DNA from: a virus
IMG/VR virus record: IMGVR_UViG_3300036826_000261
Coordinates: 1 to 64,000 of that record
DNA length: 64,000 bases
Direction: 5' to 3' (one strand)
This document shows, piece by piece, positions 10,925-64,000 of this stretch (its first letter is position 1; each line of letters begins with the position of its first letter). Below the pieces are notes generated by a model, which was not told the DNA's origin, ran no database searches, and saw only the letters and a program-made list of their open reading frames with translations. Both the position numbers and the translations under genes were made by a program.

Positions 10925-11003
10925 AACGCAACGGCTGGAGCACTTGCAATGCTCCAGCCGTCACTTGACCTAGCAACCTGTCTGGAGGCTGCCATGCCCA
11001 AAG
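10925..11003 (+). repeat. Homing-endonuclease leader cassette, copy A
   Basis: This leader contains a perfect 12-base-pair hairpin (10931-10942 with 10950-10961, loop cttgcaa). The invariant block cgtcacttgacctagcaacc follows, then a ribosome site (ggagg) and the first codons ATG CCC AAA. Nearly the same sequence occurs at 45007-45087 before an unrelated homing endonuclease. The hairpin has no U tract, so it is not a simple terminator. It sits between the terminase stop and the interrupted HNH gene. Confidence 0.75.
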
Positions 11004-11530
11004 CTTTGGATATCACAAATCGACGTTTCGGACGACTCATCGCCCGCAAGATAGCGGGTCATGTGCGCGGGAACGGAGGCCAAAGTTATATCGTTTGGTT
11101 ATGCGATTGCGATTGCGGCAATCGAACCAAAGTAACTACAGCCAATCTTAGACAGCCGGGCGGCACAAAGTCCTGTGGTTGTTATTGGCTGGACCTTCAA
11201 GGGTCTCGTAATCTTCGTCACGGTCAAACCCGCAATGGAAAAATTAGCGGTGTGTACAACAGTTGGGCCGGCATGATCTAACGTTGTACTAATCCCAATT
11301 CTCAAGTTTGGAAATACTACGGTGGGCGCGGCATCAAGGTTCACAAGCCTTGGTTTCGTTTCGAAGCTTTCTACGCGTACGTTGGCGATAAGCCAAAAGG
11401 CAAGACGCTAGACCGCTACCCGAATCAAAACGGCGATTACAAACCGGGCAATGTTCGCTGGGCTACGCCAGCAGAGCAGGCCAATAATCGACGTCTTCGA
11501 AAAAGAGGTTACAGGAGAAAATTCAAATGA
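10994..11530 (+). pseudogene. HNH homing endonuclease interrupted by an ochre codon
   Basis: The frame opens MPKALDITNRRFGRLIARK, has the Cys-rich zinc segment CDCDCGNRTKV / SCGCY, and reaches a TAA at 11279-11281 exactly where homologues continue. After the TAA the same frame reads RCTNPNSQVWKYYGGRGIKV and runs to a TGA at 11530. This is the standard core of phage HNH/NUMOD homing endonucleases and matches the intact gene at 21214. One codon change (for example CAA to TAA) has probably inactivated it. Its final ATGA overlaps the start of the capsid-like gene. Confidence 0.8.
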
Positions 11531-12600
11531 ATCGCCACGTGATCGAGCACACGGCGCCACCGGAGCGTGGTTTTCGACGCAATCCGCTGCCTGTCTCACA
11601 AGGCAACTGTTTTGTGCGCATGCTGACCGCCAAGGTGATTGGCCAGTTGCGCAACATGGCACCGATCTCGGTCGCCACCGGAATGTGGCCGAGCGACAGA
11701 ATCACAGCCGAGATTTTGGAACGCGCATCGAGCGCGCCGGCCATGACGGGCGTAGCCGGTTGGGCTGCCGAGCTGACACAGCGGTTGGTCAGTGACGCGA
11801 TCTCGATCATGAGTGGCGTATCGGCCGGCGCCGAAGTGCTGCGGCGCTGCTTGATGCTGGCGTTGGATCGCAACGGCTTTTTGGTGCCGGGTCTGGTGGT
11901 TGACGCTACCGGCGCTTCGTTTGTCGCTGAAGGTGATCCGATCCCGGTGCACAATCTTGCGACGACGCCAGGATCGATTCCGTTTACCAAGCTCGCCAGC
12001 ATCGCGGTTTTGACAAGAGAAATGGTTGAATCGAGCAACGCCGAAGCGCTGATCGGCAACGCGCTGGGACGTGCAGCCGGTTTGGCGCTCGATGCCGTGC
12101 TGTTTTCCAGCGCCGCCGCGACATCAGCAGCGCCGGCTGGCTTGCGCAACGGCATTGGTGCTTTGACGGCAAGCGTCAACACCGATCCGTTCGCAGCGGT
12201 GTTCGAGGACATGGCAACGCTGTTCAACGCGGTCGGTCAAGTCGGCGGTGCCGGCCCGTTTGTTCTGGTTGCGGGTCCCGGCCGCGCGATAACCTTTTCC
12301 ATGCGGGTCGGCGGTGGCGCACAGTTATCGGTTTATCCGGTGGCGTCCAGCTTCGTCGGCAATGACCTGATCGCGATTGCACCACAGGCGATCGCGGCTG
12401 CGCTCGGCACGGAGCCGGTCATCGAGGCAGCAAAGGCCGGTGTTTTGCATATGGACACGGCGCCATCGGCGTCGCCTTCGGCCGGCGCGCGAAAAGAGAT
12501 GTATCAAACCGATTCGATTGCAGTGAAAATGCACTGGCCAGTATCTTGGCTTTTGCGCGATGCGCGCGGCGTGGCGTGGCTGACGCCGGCCTGGAAGTGA
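11527..12600 (+). CDS. HK97-fold major capsid-like protein 1, no protease domain
   Basis: The 357-residue protein aligns over its length with the capsid domain of the fusion protein at 18860. Shared landmarks are APAMTGVAGWAAEL against APAMTTVAGWAQEL, then SFVAEGDPIPV against SFVGEGMAIPV, PAGLRNGIGA against PAGLLNGVGA, and the end QTDSIAVKMHWPVSW against QTDSLALRMVFPVNW. It therefore has the HK97 capsid fold but no scaffold/protease part. The start overlaps the stop of the HNH relic. It could be a second shell protein, a vertex or decoration protein, or a capsid variant. Function is inferred from homology. Confidence 0.8.
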   Translation: MNRHVIEHTAPPERGFRRNPLPVSQGNCFVRMLTAKVIGQLRNMAPISVATGMWPSDRITAEILERASSAPAMTGVAGWAAELTQRLVSDAISIMSGVSAGAEVLRRCLMLALDRNGFLVPGLVVDATGASFVAEGDPIPVHNLATTPGSIPFTKLASIAVLTREMVESSNAEALIGNALGRAAGLALDAVLFSSAAATSAAPAGLRNGIGALTASVNTDPFAAVFEDMATLFNAVGQVGGAGPFVLVAGPGRAITFSMRVGGGAQLSVYPVASSFVGNDLIAIAPQAIAAALGTEPVIEAAKAGVLHMDTAPSASPSAGARKEMYQTDSIAVKMHWPVSWLLRDARGVAWLTPAWK

Positions 12601-18850: not shown

Positions 18851-18859
18851 GAGAAGCTC

Positions 18860-21148
18860 ATGCCGATCAAGCCGCACAAGGGCGAGAGCCAAAGCGATTT
18901 CATGGGTCGCTGCATGCATGAGCTTGGCCAGAGCGACACCGAGCGTCCGCAGGATCAGAAGGTCGCGATCTGCATGAGCGCGTGGCGTGATGCGCATGGC
19001 GGTGAGCCGCCGAAGAAGTCGTGCGATCCGAACGACTATGACGACGATGAGCACGAAGAGTTTATGGCCGATTGTATCGATGAAGGCGGCGACGAAGACG
19101 AATGCGCAATGCGCTGGAACGAGGAACGCGGCGCAAAGCCGCCGGTGCAGCGCGTCGAGCATAAGCCACTGTATCACAAGACCCACAGCGGCACCGTGCA
19201 GGAAATGGAGTTCGTCATGTCTGACGAAACCGTTGATCGCATGGGTGATGTGATCTCGGCGAGCGGCTGGGAGCTGGAGAACTTCCACAAGAATCCGGTT
19301 TGTCTGTTCAATCACAGGGCTGATTTCCCGATCGGCCGATGGAAAAATCTGCGCGCTGAGAAAGGCGCGCTGCGCGGCTATTTGCAACTGGCACCGGAGG
19401 GCACTTCACCGCGGATCGACGAAATTCGACGGTTGGTCGAGGCCGGGATTCTGTGTTCGGTCTCGGTCGGTTTTCATCCGCTTGAAAGTGAGCCGCTCGA
19501 CAAGAAAGCCGGTTCGTTCGGCGGCATGCGTTTTCTTAAGCAGGAATTGATCGAAACTTCGCTGGTCAGCGTGCCGGCGAACCCGAATGCCTTGGCGATT
19601 GCCAAATCGCTGGGGGTCAGCTCCGCAACAATCGACGTCGTCTTCGCCAAGCACGGCAACAGAGAGGACGTCAGGACGCGGGACTTCACTGCCAAGCACG
19701 GCAACACGTCTCATGATCGAAGGGGCAGGATTATGCCCGAAGTTCAACTGTCACAACGCATTATCGATCTGCAGCAGCAGATCGCGAACCTGCAAGAAGG
19801 ATTGCAGGCGCATCTCGATAAGATGGACGACACCAATGTCAGCGATGCTGATATGCAGAAGACCAACGATTACAACGCAAGAATCACGCAGATGCGTAAC
19901 AACCTTGCGGGGTTGATCGAGTCCGAAAAGAATCTCGCCGCGTCGGTGGATTCTGTTGTCGATCAGCGGCGGCAACGCGCGCTGGCGACGACATCGATGA
20001 GCAGAGACCCGGAGATCGTCAGTCCGGCAATTCTCAGGCAGTCGAAAAAGGACTGGGAACCGATCGACTACCTCGTGCACGCAGGTGTTTGCCACGCGCT
20101 GGCGAAAATCTGCGGAACGTCGCCGCACTTCGAGATGACGCGCATCTACGGCAACGACGACGCGCACAAGACGGTGCTCGACTGGACCATGCGCGCAGCC
20201 GCAGCACCGGCCATGACGACGGTGGCCGGCTGGGCGCAGGAGCTGGTGCATCAAATCTACGCTGACATGATGGCGCTGCTGTTGCCGCAGTCGGTGTTTC
20301 CGCGGTTCTCTGCCAAGGGCATGACGCTGAGCTTCGGCAACGCCGGCAAGATTCTGCTGCCGACGCGCTCGGCAACGCCGTCGATCGCCGGCTCGTTCGT
20401 CGGTGAAGGCATGGCGATCCCGGTGCGGCAAGGTGCGTTCACCAGCCAGACCTTCACGCCGAAAAAGATGGGCGTGATCACGACTTGGACTCGCGAGATG
20501 GGCGACCACAGCATTCCCGCGATCGAGGGCGTGCTGCGTGAAGCCATCCAGCAGGACACTGCGATCTCGCTGGATTCGGTTCTACTCGACGCCAATGCGG
20601 CGACCACGATCCGTCCGGCTGGTCTCCTGAACGGTGTCGGTGCGACGACGGCGACGGCCGGCGGCGGTGTTGCGGCGGTGGTCGGCGATATCAAGGCTCT
20701 GCTTGGTTCGCTGGTCACGGCGACTAAGGGCAATGTTCGTTCCCCGGTATGGCTGATGAACCCGGTGGACATGCTGTCGGCCTCGTTGGTGTTTGCCGCC
20801 AACACTGGCACGTTCCCGTTCCGCGACGAGATCGGTCGCGGCACGCTGAACAATATCCCGATCATCGACTCGGCCACGGTGACGGCCAAGACGGTGATCC
20901 TGACCGACGCGGCGGATTTTGTCGTCATGCAAGGCGACAACGTGCGCTTCGACATCTCGGATCAGGCGACGTTGCACATGGAAGACACCAATCCGCTCGA
21001 TCTGGTGTCCGGATCGCCCGGTGTCGTGGCGTCGCCGCAGCGCTCGCTGTTCCAGACCGACAGCCTCGCGCTGCGCATGGTCTTCCCGGTGAACTGGGCG
21101 TTCCGCCGCAGCGGCATGGTCAGTTGGACCCAGAATGTGACATGGTAG
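18860..21148 (+). CDS. Prohead protease-major capsid fusion
   Basis: The 762-residue protein combines two head functions. Residues about 60-240 are a U35 prohead protease: DRMGDVISASGWELENFHKNP, then His152 in LFNHRADF, Ser202 in SVSVGFHP and ETSLVSVPANPNA. A coiled-coil delta/scaffold segment follows (QRIIDLQQQIANLQEGLQ, about 295-360), then the HK97 capsid domain to the C-terminus. In HK97 the protease and capsid are separate genes; here self-cleavage of a fused precursor is expected. The ATG at 18860 follows ggagaa. The capsid domain is related to the protein at 11527. Confidence 0.92.
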   Translation: MPIKPHKGESQSDFMGRCMHELGQSDTERPQDQKVAICMSAWRDAHGGEPPKKSCDPNDYDDDEHEEFMADCIDEGGDEDECAMRWNEERGAKPPVQRVEHKPLYHKTHSGTVQEMEFVMSDETVDRMGDVISASGWELENFHKNPVCLFNHRADFPIGRWKNLRAEKGALRGYLQLAPEGTSPRIDEIRRLVEAGILCSVSVGFHPLESEPLDKKAGSFGGMRFLKQELIETSLVSVPANPNALAIAKSLGVSSATIDVVFAKHGNREDVRTRDFTAKHGNTSHDRRGRIMPEVQLSQRIIDLQQQIANLQEGLQAHLDKMDDTNVSDADMQKTNDYNARITQMRNNLAGLIESEKNLAASVDSVVDQRRQRALATTSMSRDPEIVSPAILRQSKKDWEPIDYLVHAGVCHALAKICGTSPHFEMTRIYGNDDAHKTVLDWTMRAAAAPAMTTVAGWAQELVHQIYADMMALLLPQSVFPRFSAKGMTLSFGNAGKILLPTRSATPSIAGSFVGEGMAIPVRQGAFTSQTFTPKKMGVITTWTREMGDHSIPAIEGVLREAIQQDTAISLDSVLLDANAATTIRPAGLLNGVGATTATAGGGVAAVVGDIKALLGSLVTATKGNVRSPVWLMNPVDMLSASLVFAANTGTFPFRDEIGRGTLNNIPIIDSATVTAKTVILTDAADFVVMQGDNVRFDISDQATLHMEDTNPLDLVSGSPGVVASPQRSLFQTDSLALRMVFPVNWAFRRSGMVSWTQNVTW

Positions 21149-38101: not shown

Positions 38102-38106
38102 CTTGT

Positions 38107-38256
38107 GCCGACCATGACGAGACCGGCCCGGCCAGACGGCGCCAAGGCCAAACCCCGACAAACCACGCCTGCCAAGTCTGGCTTTGCTTGGCCAAATCTT
38201 ACCGCGCCAGACCTTGTCGCGCCGAACCGCGCCTGTCCTCGCCTGCCATGCCTAAG
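38107..38256 (-). repeat. GG-pentad array, minus orientation
   Basis: On the minus strand it starts CTTAGGCATGGCAGGCGAGG and continues about 150 bases with GG roughly every five bases. It is non-coding and sits between the chaperones and the tape measure gene. The header word and rhythm match the arrays at 62741 and 63217. Confidence 0.65.
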
Positions 38257-45006: not shown

Positions 45007-45087
45007 AACGCAACGGCTGAAGCATTGGAAGTGCTCCAGCCGTCACTTGACCTAGCAACCTTGTAGGGAAGGCTGCCATGCCCAAAG
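45007..45087 (+). repeat. Homing-endonuclease leader cassette, copy B
   Basis: It matches the leader at 10925-11003: a 12-base stem (45013-45024 with 45032-45043, one A-C mismatch), the identical block cgtcacttgacctagcaacc, a ribosome site and ATG CCC AAA. The protein that follows belongs to a different nuclease family, so the leader has moved or been kept independently of the nuclease. Confidence 0.75.
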
Positions 45088-45698
45088 TTCTGTCTAGCAC
45101 AAACCAACGCAAGAAGCAGTGTGCGGCTGCATCTCGTCGATATAGAGCCAAGCATAAGCAGAAACACGCTGCGCTGAACCTTGTCAGTTACTACCGATTA
45201 AAATCTGATCCTGAGTGGTTAGCGAAACGTCGCGCTAAGGCGACGATAAACGCACGAAAATGGCGTGCCGCAAACCCTGAAAAATGTCGAGCAGCACAGC
45301 GTCGATATCGCAATAAAGATAACAACCGAGAAAAAATAAACCAACGAACTAAACGATGGTTAGCAGCCAATCCAGACCAACTTTTGAAACGTCGTGCGCA
45401 GTCCTTAGCTTGGGCGAAAGCCAATCTAGGTTTGCATCGTAAATACAAACTAGGCATCACGCCAGAACAGTTTGGTGCAATGCTAGAATCTCAACAGCAT
45501 AGATGTTTGGTTTGTCGGATCGATTTGCGAACACTGCGCGGGAAAAACGTTCATCTTGATCATTGCCATAGCACAAACCGTGTTCGAGGAATTTTGTGCC
45601 ACGGATGCAATACAGCTCTTGGTTTCATGAAAGAGAATGCCGCTAATTTGAGGGCGCTAGCGGACTACATAGAAGGGTTCTCGACATGTCGTGTCTGA
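45078..45698 (+). CDS. Endonuclease VII-type homing endonuclease
   Basis: The 206-residue protein has a very basic N-terminal half with repeated YR..K / NPEKCRAAQRRYRNKD units. The C-terminus is a recombination endonuclease VII domain: CLVC, LDHCHSTNRVRGILCHGCNTALG with the catalytic DHCH, and MKENAANLRALADYIEG. Such genes are common free-standing homing endonucleases in phages. It is richer in A+T than its neighbours and lies between spike and membrane-protein genes, overlapping the latter by 13 bases. Confidence 0.88.
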   Translation: MPKVLSSTNQRKKQCAAASRRYRAKHKQKHAALNLVSYYRLKSDPEWLAKRRAKATINARKWRAANPEKCRAAQRRYRNKDNNREKINQRTKRWLAANPDQLLKRRAQSLAWAKANLGLHRKYKLGITPEQFGAMLESQQHRCLVCRIDLRTLRGKNVHLDHCHSTNRVRGILCHGCNTALGFMKENAANLRALADYIEGFSTCRV

Positions 45699-61220: not shown

Positions 61221-61257
61221 AGCCGGGTGGCCCTCCAAGCGCCCGGCTTTCTTTTTT
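61221..61257 (+). terminator. Rho-independent terminator of the late operon
   Basis: AGCCGGG (61221-61227) pairs with CCCGGCT (61242-61248) and is followed by TTTCTTTTTT. It ends the late transcript 43 bases after the Pro-rich protein gene. Confidence 0.85.
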
Positions 61258-61362: not shown

Positions 61363-62241
61363 ATGGCGAAAAAGGCACCCGTCAGTGAAATCATCGAAAT
61401 CCAAGCTATCGAAATGGCGTCGCTGGATTTCCATGTGGTCGGCACCAGCCCGTTCATCATGCATCGCTTCAGTCAGAAGGCGTGGCAGGAATTGCTGCTG
61501 CCGTCGATCCGCGAAAACCGCGCTAGTCTCGAACAGAAGCTCAAGCATGATCCGTATGCAGAATTTCGTGGCGCGTTCTATCGCAACAGCAATCCGCGCG
61601 CCAAGACGGCGTACCATATTCCAAACGGCGCGTTTCACGGCGCGATCGCCAGCGCCGCGCTCGACATGCCGGGTGCCAAGAAGGCGCAGATCGAGCGGTT
61701 GACCAAGATCACCAGCGTCAACATCGAACTGTATGGCATCCCGAAAATCTTTTGCAGCATGGTGCGTAACAGCGACATCTCGCGCACGCCAGATGTGCGC
61801 ACCCGGCCGATCTTCCCGCGCTGGGCGTGCACGGTTTCGGTGCGCTACGCGAAGAACGCGTTGACGGCCAAAGCCGTCGCCAATCTGTTCGGCGCGGCGG
61901 GCGAGATCATCGGCATCGGTGATTGGCGCGGTCAGAAGGGCGGACCGTTCGGCGCGTTCCGCACCAACGTGTCGGTGAACGATAAAGAGTTCAAGAGCAT
62001 CTTGAAGGAAGGCCGCGTCGCGCAATTGAAAGCTTACGACAAACCGTTGTTCTACGATGAAGACACGGAAGAAATTTTAACGTGGTTCGCCACCGAGGTG
62101 CGCCGCCGTGAGTTGGAAGGCAAGATGCGCAGCGATAACGTCAAGGAGTTTCGCGTTATCACCGAGCGCGGCAAGGAGCGCGGCAACGGCGAGTTGGTGA
62201 GCCTTGACGACAAGCGGCGGACCCGTCGAAAGGCCGCGTGA
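61363..62241 (+). CDS. Conserved phage protein with RAMP-like glycine-rich loop, 292 aa
   Basis: The protein begins with a strand (MASLDFHVVGTSPFIMHRFS). Helical stretches and ISRTPDVRTRPIFPRWACTVSVRY come next. It then has GAAGEIIGIGDWRGQKGG followed by PFGAFR, a glycine-rich loop similar to those of RAMP/Cas7-type RRM folds. It ends in a basic RGKERGNGELVSLDDKRRTRRK tail. Relatives are common in phages without known function. Binding of single-stranded nucleic acid is a reasonable guess. The ribosome site is gggagag. Confidence 0.6.
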   Translation: MAKKAPVSEIIEIQAIEMASLDFHVVGTSPFIMHRFSQKAWQELLLPSIRENRASLEQKLKHDPYAEFRGAFYRNSNPRAKTAYHIPNGAFHGAIASAALDMPGAKKAQIERLTKITSVNIELYGIPKIFCSMVRNSDISRTPDVRTRPIFPRWACTVSVRYAKNALTAKAVANLFGAAGEIIGIGDWRGQKGGPFGAFRTNVSVNDKEFKSILKEGRVAQLKAYDKPLFYDEDTEEILTWFATEVRRRELEGKMRSDNVKEFRVITERGKERGNGELVSLDDKRRTRRKAA

Positions 62242-62735
62242 TGGCGAAAGCCACCAAACACGACCGCATCAAAGCGGCGTTGGAAGCGATCAGGCGCTCG
62301 CATCGCGGGCGCTTGACGGCGCGGGCCGTGGTCGAGGCGGCCAAAAATCCTAGGCACCCGTTGCACAGTGAATTTGAATGGAACAACCAGAAAGCAGCGG
62401 ATCAGCAACGCTTGGAGCGTGCGCGCGAACTAATCAGATACGTCACGGTCGTGGTCGTTGATGCAACGCGTAAAGTCGAAACACGATTTTATGCGCACGA
62501 TCCGCGAACGCCGCATCGTGAAGGCTATGTCAGCATCTTGGAGATGAACCGCCGCGATGCTGAACAAGATGTGGTCAACGCTATCGCGATCTGTCAATCG
62601 ACGATCGATCGCGCGCTCAGCAAAGCGGAATTTCTCAGCGCGAAGCATCGTGGTGTTTCACGATTGTTGAAAAATGCAGTTGCTACCCTTGCCGCCGCGC
62701 ATGATCTGCTCGAAGGCTCGGCGGCAGCGGCGTGA
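62241..62735 (+). CDS. Conserved hypothetical protein, 164 aa
   Basis: The N-terminal part (RGRLTARAVVEAAKNPRHPLHSEFEWNN) is a pattern seen in many phage early proteins; EAAKNP.HPLH and FEW recur in that family. The middle is strand-rich (RYVTVVVVDATRKVETRFYAHD) and the C-terminus helical. It overlaps the previous gene by one base. No function is established to my knowledge. A GG-pentad array begins six bases after its stop. Confidence 0.65.
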   Translation: MAKATKHDRIKAALEAIRRSHRGRLTARAVVEAAKNPRHPLHSEFEWNNQKAADQQRLERARELIRYVTVVVVDATRKVETRFYAHDPRTPHREGYVSILEMNRRDAEQDVVNAIAICQSTIDRALSKAEFLSAKHRGVSRLLKNAVATLAAAHDLLEGSAAAA

Positions 62736-62740
62736 AGTCA

Positions 62741-62961
62741 TAGGCATGGCAGGCTAGGCAAGGTGCGGCCCGGCCGGAGTAGGTTCGGTGCGGCAAGGCA
62801 GGCATGGCCCGGGAGACGCGGTGAAGCGTGTCCGTGATCTGGTAGCGTCGGGTAAGGCGGCGTTGGATGGGGTGAGGCGAGGCAGGCTTGGTCAGGTCTG
62901 ACGAGACTGGGCGCGGTAGGTTTTGGCGCGGTACGGCAAGGCGTGATGCGGTAAGGCAGGC
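62741..62961 (+). repeat. GG-pentad array, plus orientation, copy 1
   Basis: Starting at TAGGCATGG (62741-62749), this 221-base stretch repeats GG about every five bases: the bases divide as ggcat ggcag gctag gcaag and so on, with degenerate other positions. No perfect unit repeats and no coding signal. It ends where the ATG of the next gene is taken from its own GGCATGG word. Confidence 0.75.
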
Positions 62962-63219
62962 ATGGCCAGAAACACAGCGGATAAGGTTCTCGAAAACAAG
63001 TTGCGGCTGATCGCCAAACGGCGGGGTTTGTTTCTTTCGAAATCCCGTCGTCGCGATCCGTTTGCGCTCGACTTTGGTTATGAGTTGAGAGACGCGCAAC
63101 AGCACGTCATCGAAACAGCGTGCAGTCTTACTCGAATCGAAAACTTGTTAGCTCTCGGTCGGACGGGGCGGAAACGTTTAACAGTCGAAGGATGGCGTCA
63201 CATCATCCTTGGTAAGTAG
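62962..63219 (+). CDS. Small basic protein between arrays, 85 aa
   Basis: MARNTADKVLENKLRLIAKR then RGLFLSKSRRRDPFALDFGY is the pattern of a widespread small protein family (KSRRRDP with Gly-Tyr) of unknown function found in many bacteria and their phages. A helix near the end (IENLLALGRTGRKRLTVEGW) follows. It is clearly more protein-like than the surrounding arrays. Its ATG lies in the upstream array and its stop TAG is the first triplet of the downstream array header. No ribosome site other than array sequence (taaggc) precedes it. Confidence 0.65.
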   Translation: MARNTADKVLENKLRLIAKRRGLFLSKSRRRDPFALDFGYELRDAQQHVIETACSLTRIENLLALGRTGRKRLTVEGWRHIILGK

Positions 63220-64000
63220 GCATGGCAGGCGTGGCCGGGCCGGGTTGTCCCCGGTGTGGCAGAGCATGGCAGCGCAGGGTTGACATGGCAGGGCAGGCAG
63301 GGTCCGTCGTGGTCGCGCGGGATTGGGCGGGGCAAGGCACGGCACGATGCTGGTCTGGCGAGGCGTGGCAGGCATGGCTGGATCAGGCGTGACGAAGCTT
63401 GGTGTAGCTAGGCCGGGTGCAGTGTAGGCATGGCGAGGCAGGCGCGGCGGGACAAGGTCCGATATGGCGTGGCGCGGTCTGGTTCGGTCTGGCCGGGTTT
63501 GGCAGGCAAGGTGCGTCGAGGCCAAACATGGTGTGACAAGGTACGGCGCGGCCTGATCTGGGCTCGACTGGGCAGGCGCGGTGGGTTCTGGCTCGACATG
63601 GTTAGGCGAGGCCCGGTGATGCCCGGCATGTTGAAGTGCGTCCTGGCAGGCGTGGCGGGGGTGCGTGCGAGGCGGGACCGGGCAAGGTCGGGCACGTTAT
63701 ATGGTCTGGCTGGGCACGGCTTGGCGGGTCACGGCAAGGCACGGCCGGCAAGGTTTGTCCGGAACCGGTTTGGCTTGGCGAGATGCGATTAGGCGAGGCG
63801 AAGCGAGGCCGGCTAAGCGTGACTTGGTCGGGTAGACGTGGCCGGGCACGGTAGCGGCGTGGATCGGCCGGCGACGCTAGGCTTGTCGTCGATCGGCATG
63901 ACATGGCGCGGCACGGCGAGGCGTGGTTCGGCCGGCGCGATTAGGTGTGGTCGGAATCGGCATGGCTCGGTGTCGCGTGGTCTGGCGTGGCTCGGCTGGG
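63217..64000 (+). repeat. GG-pentad array, plus orientation, copy 2 (runs off the window)
   Basis: From TAGGCATGG at 63217, about 780 bases continue to the window end with GG every five bases in long in-phase runs (for example catgg cgcgg cacgg cgagg cgtgg ttcgg near 63901-63930). A second header, TAGGCATGG, is at 63425-63433, so at least two units are joined. Open frames through it are a by-product of composition. Nothing else is seen in this stretch. Confidence 0.8.

What the first reader, a model, noticed from the sequence alone, without database searches (positions are those of the whole stretch)
62741..64000. Undescribed class of non-coding arrays with GG every five bases
Over about 1 kb in two blocks, GG recurs on a five-base lattice while the other three positions vary, so it is not an ordinary tandem repeat. 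Each block opens with TAGGCATGG. (GGNNN)n on one strand is the minimal two-layer G-quadruplex pattern, so many overlapping quadruplexes or R-loops could form. As RNA, an NGG triplet every five bases has the same spacing as the GAG/UAG triplets bound by the ring protein TRAP; as DNA it puts GG on alternating helix faces. I know of no phage element with this description. Possible roles include packaging or replication signal, transcription road-block, protein-wrapping RNA, or a selfish repeat.
Basis: partly seen in the sequence, partly recalled or inferred. Interest (0 to 1): 0.88.

Follow-up and report, generated by a model that had tools for sequence, protein, structure and literature searches.

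The report
Phage VIPR guide-RNA array (GGYNN repeats)
The strange DNA with GG every five bases is a store of about 25 guide RNAs belonging to VIPR, an RNA-guided system described in 2026 that phages use to silence rival phages, and at least two of the guides can be matched to genes of competing Bradyrhizobium phages and mobile elements.

Summary
A GG-Y-NN pentamer array runs from 62742 to 65179 of a 72.7-kb soil myophage contig, interrupted only by an 85-aa ORF, and a third copy lies at 38106-38252 on the minus strand. It is not undescribed: it is the vrRNA array of a VIPR system (Viral Interference Programmable Repeat; preprint PMC13142463, 2026). Just upstream lie vipr (61363-62241), a RAMP protein whose family profile matches the solved SUSP1 Vipr at E=2e-34, and a candidate accessory gene, vap (62241-62735). 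Arrays fetched by DNA pattern alone have vipr alongside in 92 of 109 strong cases; the GG strand is the vipr coding strand in 113 of 114. Under VIPR's one-base-skip code I decoded two natural targets. Guide 63870 matches Bradyrhizobium integrase genes (23/24, skips on wobble bases). Guide 64673 matches the tail-fibre gene of related phages and prophages (22/22); the phage's own fibre gene differs at 7 of 24 positions. Pairing begins immediately after a tetramer (GGCA/GGCC) that punctuates the array, probably the 5' guide boundary. Expression and activity are inferred, not shown. New member of a known, very recent kind.

The parts
61221..61255 (+). GC-rich stem followed by a T run, intrinsic-terminator-like, separating the locus from the upstream gene
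   Evidence: read directly from sequence; only a weak partial Rfam suhB match, E=0.011, below gathering
61363..62241 (+). vipr: RAMP-family Vipr protein, 292 aa (phrog_4652)
   Evidence: family profile vs PDB 36pp_D 'SUSP1 Vipr protein' E=2.2e-34; single-sequence phmmer E=0.0034; AlphaFold2 pLDDT 90, Foldseek top PDB hits are Csm/Cas7-type RAMPs
62241..62735 (+). candidate vap (vipr-accessory protein), 164 aa, phrog_15946; start codon overlaps the vipr stop (TGATG)
   Evidence: phrog_15946 E=2.4e-14; homologs next to vipr in Gordonia phages, mycobacteriophages and many contigs; model pLDDT 91, no significant PDB fold match
62742..62970 (+). vrRNA array A (about 228 bp)
   Evidence: GG on the vipr coding strand
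62962..63219 (+). 85-aa ORF between the arrays; its ATG lies in the last units of array A and its stop abuts the first unit of array B; no relative found
63219..64000 (+). vrRNA array B, part inside the window (continues to record position about 65179, 1.96 kb in all)
63870..63929 (+). guide of 12 units (GA TA TT GT TC AT AT GC AC GA GT TC) bounded by two GGCC tetramers; predicted target: tyrosine-integrase genes of Bradyrhizobium
   Evidence: 10 of 266 genomes with <=3/24 mismatches, four with 1/24, reversed control 0; skip base at codon position 3 in all eight sites examined
38106..38252 (-). detached third vrRNA array, between tail genes, GG on the strand opposite to the neighbouring genes
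   Evidence: identical in the near-identical contig IMGVR_UViG_3300036857_000248
25092..25622 (+). C-terminal part of the phage's own collagen-like tail fibre gene, homologue of the gene targeted in relatives by guide 64673; best own site (25326, minus strand) has 7/24 mismatches

Best explanation
The arrays are the guide-RNA store of a VIPR system. Transcribed with vipr and the candidate vap, the RNA would be handled as units of roughly 9-16 GGYNN pentamers. Vipr, a single-RRM RAMP, binds along it through the constant GGY and presents the NN dinucleotides. These pair with one strand of double-stranded DNA at NNxNNxNN..., skipping one target base per unit, usually the codon wobble base, and the bound complex blocks transcription. 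Here the guides aim at competing mobile elements of Bradyrhizobium: an integrase gene and the tail-fibre gene of related phages and prophages, while the phage's own fibre allele is spared. The GGCA/GGCC tetramers most likely mark where each guide begins. Shown here: array grammar, linkage to vipr and vap, Vipr homology and fold, and statistically supported targets. Taken from the paper: RNA binding, the pairing code, repression. Inferred: expression, processing and effect in this phage.
For: Vipr profile hits solved SUSP1 Vipr at E=2.2e-34; RAMP fold. Array grammar matches the published GGY/NN vrRNA. In loci fetched by DNA pattern alone, vipr is present in 60/68 viral and 32/41 genome loci with strong arrays, against 11/72 with weak or no arrays and 5/206 in relatives not selected by array; same strand 113/114, median distance 22 nt. 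Skip-rule test with 2,526 ten-unit windows on 4.4 Mb: skip 1 gives 2 guides with 20/20 targets and 9 with <=1 mismatch; skips 0, 2, 3, 4 and all shuffles give none at 20/20 and 0-4 at <=1. Guide 64673: three exact 22/22 sites in all of IMG/VR, in tail-fibre genes of related phages, plus 1-mismatch sites in Bradyrhizobium genomes, three of them about 3 kb from a tail-sheath gene. Guide 63870: integrases, 23/24, wobble-aligned. Own genome spared.
Against: No expression or binding data for this phage. Only 2 of 27 decoded guides have a convincing target in the DNA searched; exact scans of IMG/VR for two guides, 63441 and 63870, found nothing and guides 63441 and 63934 found nothing convincing in Bradyrhizobium. 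No constant 3' tail, as in SUSP1 vrRNAs, is visible between units. Many GG positions in the window array are degenerate. The vap is not detectably homologous to any gene near vipr in the SUSP1-like phage Alf5, so the VIPR type is not assigned.
Confidence: 0.95

Rival explanations
1. Selfish or structural repeat: the arrays are mobile pentamer minisatellites or quadruplex/R-loop elements and lie next to vipr by chance or because vipr merely tolerates them.
For: (GGNNN)n meets the two-tier quadruplex pattern; arrays occupy different intergenic sites in related loci (in L011 between vipr and vap, in the window after vap); a detached copy exists.
Against: Position 3 is a pyrimidine in 95% of units, which quadruplexes do not need, and NN is near-random; vipr linkage and strand are almost fixed; decoded targets fit only the one-base skip.
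Confidence: 0.03
2. TRAP-like RNA: a ring protein binds triplets spaced by two bases for RNA-level regulation, with no DNA targeting.
For: Same 5-nt spacing as TRAP sites; unit blocks of about 11 pentamers.
Against: The linked protein is a Cas7-like RAMP, not TRAP; the triplet is GGY, not GAG/UAG; NN content matches rival genes at wobble-aligned sites.
Confidence: 0.01
3. It is a VIPR locus but the array is largely decaying: most guides are old, non-functional, and only a few units act. (This refines rather than excludes the best explanation.)
For: Many GG to GA/GT/TG substitutions and off-length units in the window array compared with, e.g., L073 or L034; few guides have targets found.
Against: Guide 64673 itself contains degenerate units (GACAA, TGTGA, GACCC) yet keeps 22/22 NN matches to present-day targets; target databases for this host are thin.
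Confidence: 0.25

Closest known systems
VIPR of Escherichia phage SUSP1 (type II; PMC13142463, PDB 36pp)
   Same: Vipr RAMP homologue, adjacent accessory gene, GGY/NN repeat RNAs flanking vipr on its coding strand, targets in competing mobile elements under the one-base-skip rule.
   Different: About 25 guides in one punctuated, nearly uninterrupted array of about 2.4 kb without visible constant tails; in the SUSP1-like phage Alf5 four short arrays lie apart. The accessory gene is phrog_15946, not detected in Alf5. Vipr has a ~90-aa, largely helical C-terminal extension.
VIPR 'staggered arrays with overlapping vrRNAs' (PMC13142463, main text; fig. S18 not readable here)
   Same: Probably this architecture: contiguous units without spacers.
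Class 1 CRISPR-Cas (Csm/Cas7 RAMPs)
   Same: RAMP fold; works as RNA-guided recognition with periodically interrupted pairing.
   Different: No Cas1/Cas2, no CRISPR repeats, no large effector subunit seen next to it; constant bases recur every 5 nt inside the guide; phage-borne.
TRAP (trp RNA-binding attenuation protein)
   Same: RNA with a triplet every five bases bound by an oligomer.
   Different: Unrelated protein, other triplet, no DNA targeting.

Membership tests
VIPR | Vipr: minimal RAMP homologue with RRM core and G-loop | tested here: met
   profile E=2.2e-34 to 36pp; W154, G180, G184, R189, G197 invariant in 108 sequences, the last four in the G-rich loop; Foldseek Csm/Cas7 RAMPs
VIPR | vipr with a vipr-accessory gene (vap) | tested here: inconclusive
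   a conserved adjacent gene (phrog_15946) is present and recurs with vipr, but the published vap sequences could not be read, so its identity with vap1-6 is unproven
VIPR | intergenic RNA of about 9-16 YNNGG repeats, GGY constant | tested here: met
   (at the DNA level)
VIPR | hypervariable NN positions | tested here: met
   position 4 A31 C15 G34 T20, position 5 A28 C24 G21 T28 per cent over 98 arrays
VIPR | targets follow the one-base-skip rule in competing mobile elements | tested here: met
   (in silico only, for 2 of 27 guides)
VIPR | vrRNA expressed, bound by Vipr, represses transcription | not testable with these tools
   needs sRNA-seq, pull-down and reporter assay
VIPR | constant structured 3' tail (described for the SUSP1 clade) | tested here: inconclusive
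   no constant segment between units of the window array and no Rfam match above gathering; the paper describes other array types, so this is not defining for all VIPRs
Class 1 CRISPR-Cas | CRISPR repeats with cas1/cas2 and multi-subunit effector genes | tested here: not met
   no exact repeats in the array; neighbours of vipr are vap, an orphan ORF and arrays
TRAP sites | GAG/UAG triplets bound by TRAP | tested here: not met
   triplet is GGY; linked protein is a RAMP
G-quadruplex array | folds as stacked G-tetrads in vivo | not tested
   sequence pattern compatible, but the pyrimidine constraint is not explained by it

The most novel reading that the evidence does not exclude
The long punctuated array is a growing memory: the phage lineage gains new GGYNN guides against the integrases and tail fibres of rivals that share its Bradyrhizobium hosts by some unknown, Cas1-free mechanism, with the GGCA/GGCC tetramer as the unit boundary at which guides are added or cut out.
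Probability: 0.1. Interest if true: 0.9.

Novelty: new member of a known kind. Interest (0 to 1): 0.52.

Why it matters
It independently recovers VIPR from raw sequence. It extends VIPR, with decodable guides, to soil phages whose relatives are integrated in Bradyrhizobium. It gives two concrete natural targets: a conserved integrase site and rival tail-fibre alleles, with the phage's own allele diverged. And it adds a testable rule, that guides start right after the GGCA/GGCC tetramer, which would let the hundreds of similar arrays in public data be cut into guides and their targets read.

Tried and rejected
BLASTN of the array against phage genomes found nothing, because NN divergence defeats alignment. 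No Pfam or NCBIfam family covers vipr. Literature search by 'pentanucleotide repeat' led nowhere; the lead came from the PDB profile search. Some pattern hits are ordinary tandem repeats, e.g. L198 (GGCA)n/(GGCAA)n, or GC-rich sequence in Streptomyces and others with no array score. Exact IMG/VR scans for guides 63441 and 63870 gave no hit; the 63870 target found later in Bradyrhizobium genomes has one mismatch, which an exact scan would miss. Guides 63441 and 63934 gave nothing convincing in 266 Bradyrhizobium genomes. The vap structure gave no significant fold match, weak forkhead-like hits only. Considered and rejected: frame-coded peptide (period 5, not 3; stops), B-DNA helical phasing (tetramers shift the phase the wrong way), assembly artefact (a near-identical contig from another sample carries array 3 unchanged; the same grammar recurs in over a hundred contigs).

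Full report
What is there. The reported lattice is real and part of a larger object. The window is cut from a 72,692-bp IMG/VR record. Reading beyond its end, the second block runs to about position 65179 and stops just before the next gene. A cyclic GGYNN model scores array A (62742-62970) about 81 bits, array B (63219-65179) 678 bits, and a third array on the minus strand at 38106-38252 62 bits. The best other segments in the window score 27 and 20 bits and the best in a shuffled window 15. The unit is GG, pyrimidine, two free bases. Across 98 arrays and 5,785 pentamers, GG is kept at about 90%, position 3 is C 74% / T 21%, positions 4 and 5 are near random, and a tetramer, mostly GGCA, occurs every 8-13 units.

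How widespread. After filtering with the model, the true arrays share one grammar in contigs labelled Firmicutes, Bacteroidales, Actinobacteria, Planctomycetes, Proteobacteria and others.

What goes with it. Open frames between paired arrays in unrelated contigs were recurrently homologues of two window genes, 61363-62241 and 62241-62735. Of loci fetched by array DNA alone with at least 100 bits of array, 60 of 68 viral and 32 of 41 genome loci carry gene 1, against 11 of 72 with weak or no array, and 5 of 206 loci of related phages fetched by other genes. The GG strand equals the coding strand of gene 1 in 113 of 114 cases, with a median distance of 22 nt. In annotated phages the pair is present, as hypothetical proteins, in Mycobacterium phage Pippy and relatives and in Gordonia phages.

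Identity. Gene 1 has no Pfam or NCBIfam family and belongs to phrog_4652, function unknown. A profile of 108 homologues matches the PDB chain 36pp_D, 'SUSP1 Vipr protein', at E=2.2e-34. Its AlphaFold2 model (pLDDT 90) matches CRISPR Csm/Cas7-type RAMPs in Foldseek. The VIPR preprint (PMC13142463, read) describes the system: Vipr, an accessory vap, and vrRNAs of 9-16 YNNGG repeats whose NN pair with double-stranded DNA at one-base skips, repressing rival phages. Every sequence-level feature tested is met except two left open, the type of vap and the tail.

Testing the code on this phage. I decoded pentamer runs into NN strings and searched held DNA with skips 0-4, with order-shuffled guides as control. 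Only skip 1 gave perfect 20/20 targets, for two guides, one of them from this phage (first seen). That guide begins at record 64673, in the same array just past the window edge. It matches 22 of 22 NN bases in three contigs of the whole IMG/VR collection, all in the C-terminal part of a collagen-like tail-fibre gene of related myophages, and with one mismatch in two Bradyrhizobium genomes, in one of which three copies lie about 3 kb from a tail-sheath gene like that of this phage. The phage's own fibre gene has the homologous site, but with 7 of 24 mismatches, and no guide has a close match in its own window.

A guide inside the window. Guide 63870-63929, exactly 12 units between two GGCC tetramers, has sites with at most 3 of 24 mismatches in 10 of 266 Bradyrhizobium genomes, four with a single mismatch; the same pattern read backwards has none. 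By simple base-matching odds about 0.001 sites with at most one mismatch would be expected in that much DNA (my estimate, assuming about 8 Mb per genome and equal base frequencies; codon composition would raise this somewhat). In all eight sites examined the target is a tyrosine-integrase-like gene, at the conserved stretch ending in the ...TSVAMIEKxYS motif, and the skipped base is codon position 3. Of three tested, two match Pfam Phage_integrase, one above its cut-off and one just below, and one has no Pfam match although its motif is the same. In two of the loci the next gene downstream resembles this phage's own primase, an integrase-primase arrangement suggestive of a satellite or integrative element. 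One independent guide-gene match is the unit of evidence here, since the ten sites are one gene family.

Other targets seen on the way. A Mycobacterium szulgai guide matches the vipr gene of Mycobacterium phage Pippy (20/20 over ten units) and a Mycolicibacterium canariasense guide matches Pippy's integrase (25 of 28), which fits the preprint's report of VIPRs aimed at other VIPRs.

A boundary rule. In the best target matches (five guides), pairing starts at the first pentamer after a tetramer and is absent before it; guide 63870 also starts right after a tetramer, GGCC. I infer that the tetramer is the 5' boundary of a guide. The preprint mentions staggered arrays with overlapping vrRNAs, but its supplement could not be read here, so this may or may not already be known.

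What is not shown. Expression, processing, Vipr binding and any effect in this phage; the function of the 85-aa ORF between the arrays; the VIPR type; the role of the detached array. Host assignment to Bradyrhizobium rests on genomes of the genus of L151 (Bradyrhizobium lablabi) carrying prophage-like loci with 74-78% identical tail sheath.

Noticed in passing
window 62962-63219: 85-aa ORF wedged between arrays A and B, sharing its start and stop with array units; no relative in PHROGs, Pfam or held loci.
   Followed up: partly
window 11488-12597 and 18851-21145: Two separate genes match the major head protein family phrog_617; the first matches only its middle part, suggesting a partial capsid paralogue.
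   Followed up: no
window 10925-11019 and 45007-45103: About 95 bp repeated at 87% identity at two distant places.
   Followed up: no
L381 14696-14772, L283 1069-1170, L439 10298-10379, L444 12954-13045: Related myophages carry short solitary GGYNN arrays near structural genes, like the window's third array, apparently without an adjacent vipr.
   Followed up: partly
L183 3514-3694 and L222 3143-3346: Mycobacterial VIPR guides match the vipr gene and the integrase of Mycobacterium phage Pippy under the one-base-skip rule.
   Followed up: partly
L474 and L476 (Bradyrhizobium genomes): The integrase targeted by guide 63870 lies next to a primase 47-62% identical in parts to that of the window phage (window 36-2468).
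   Followed up: partly
L198 1953-2148: A bacterial contig end made of plain (GGCA)n and (GGCAA)n repeats, a true tandem repeat and not a guide array.
   Followed up: no
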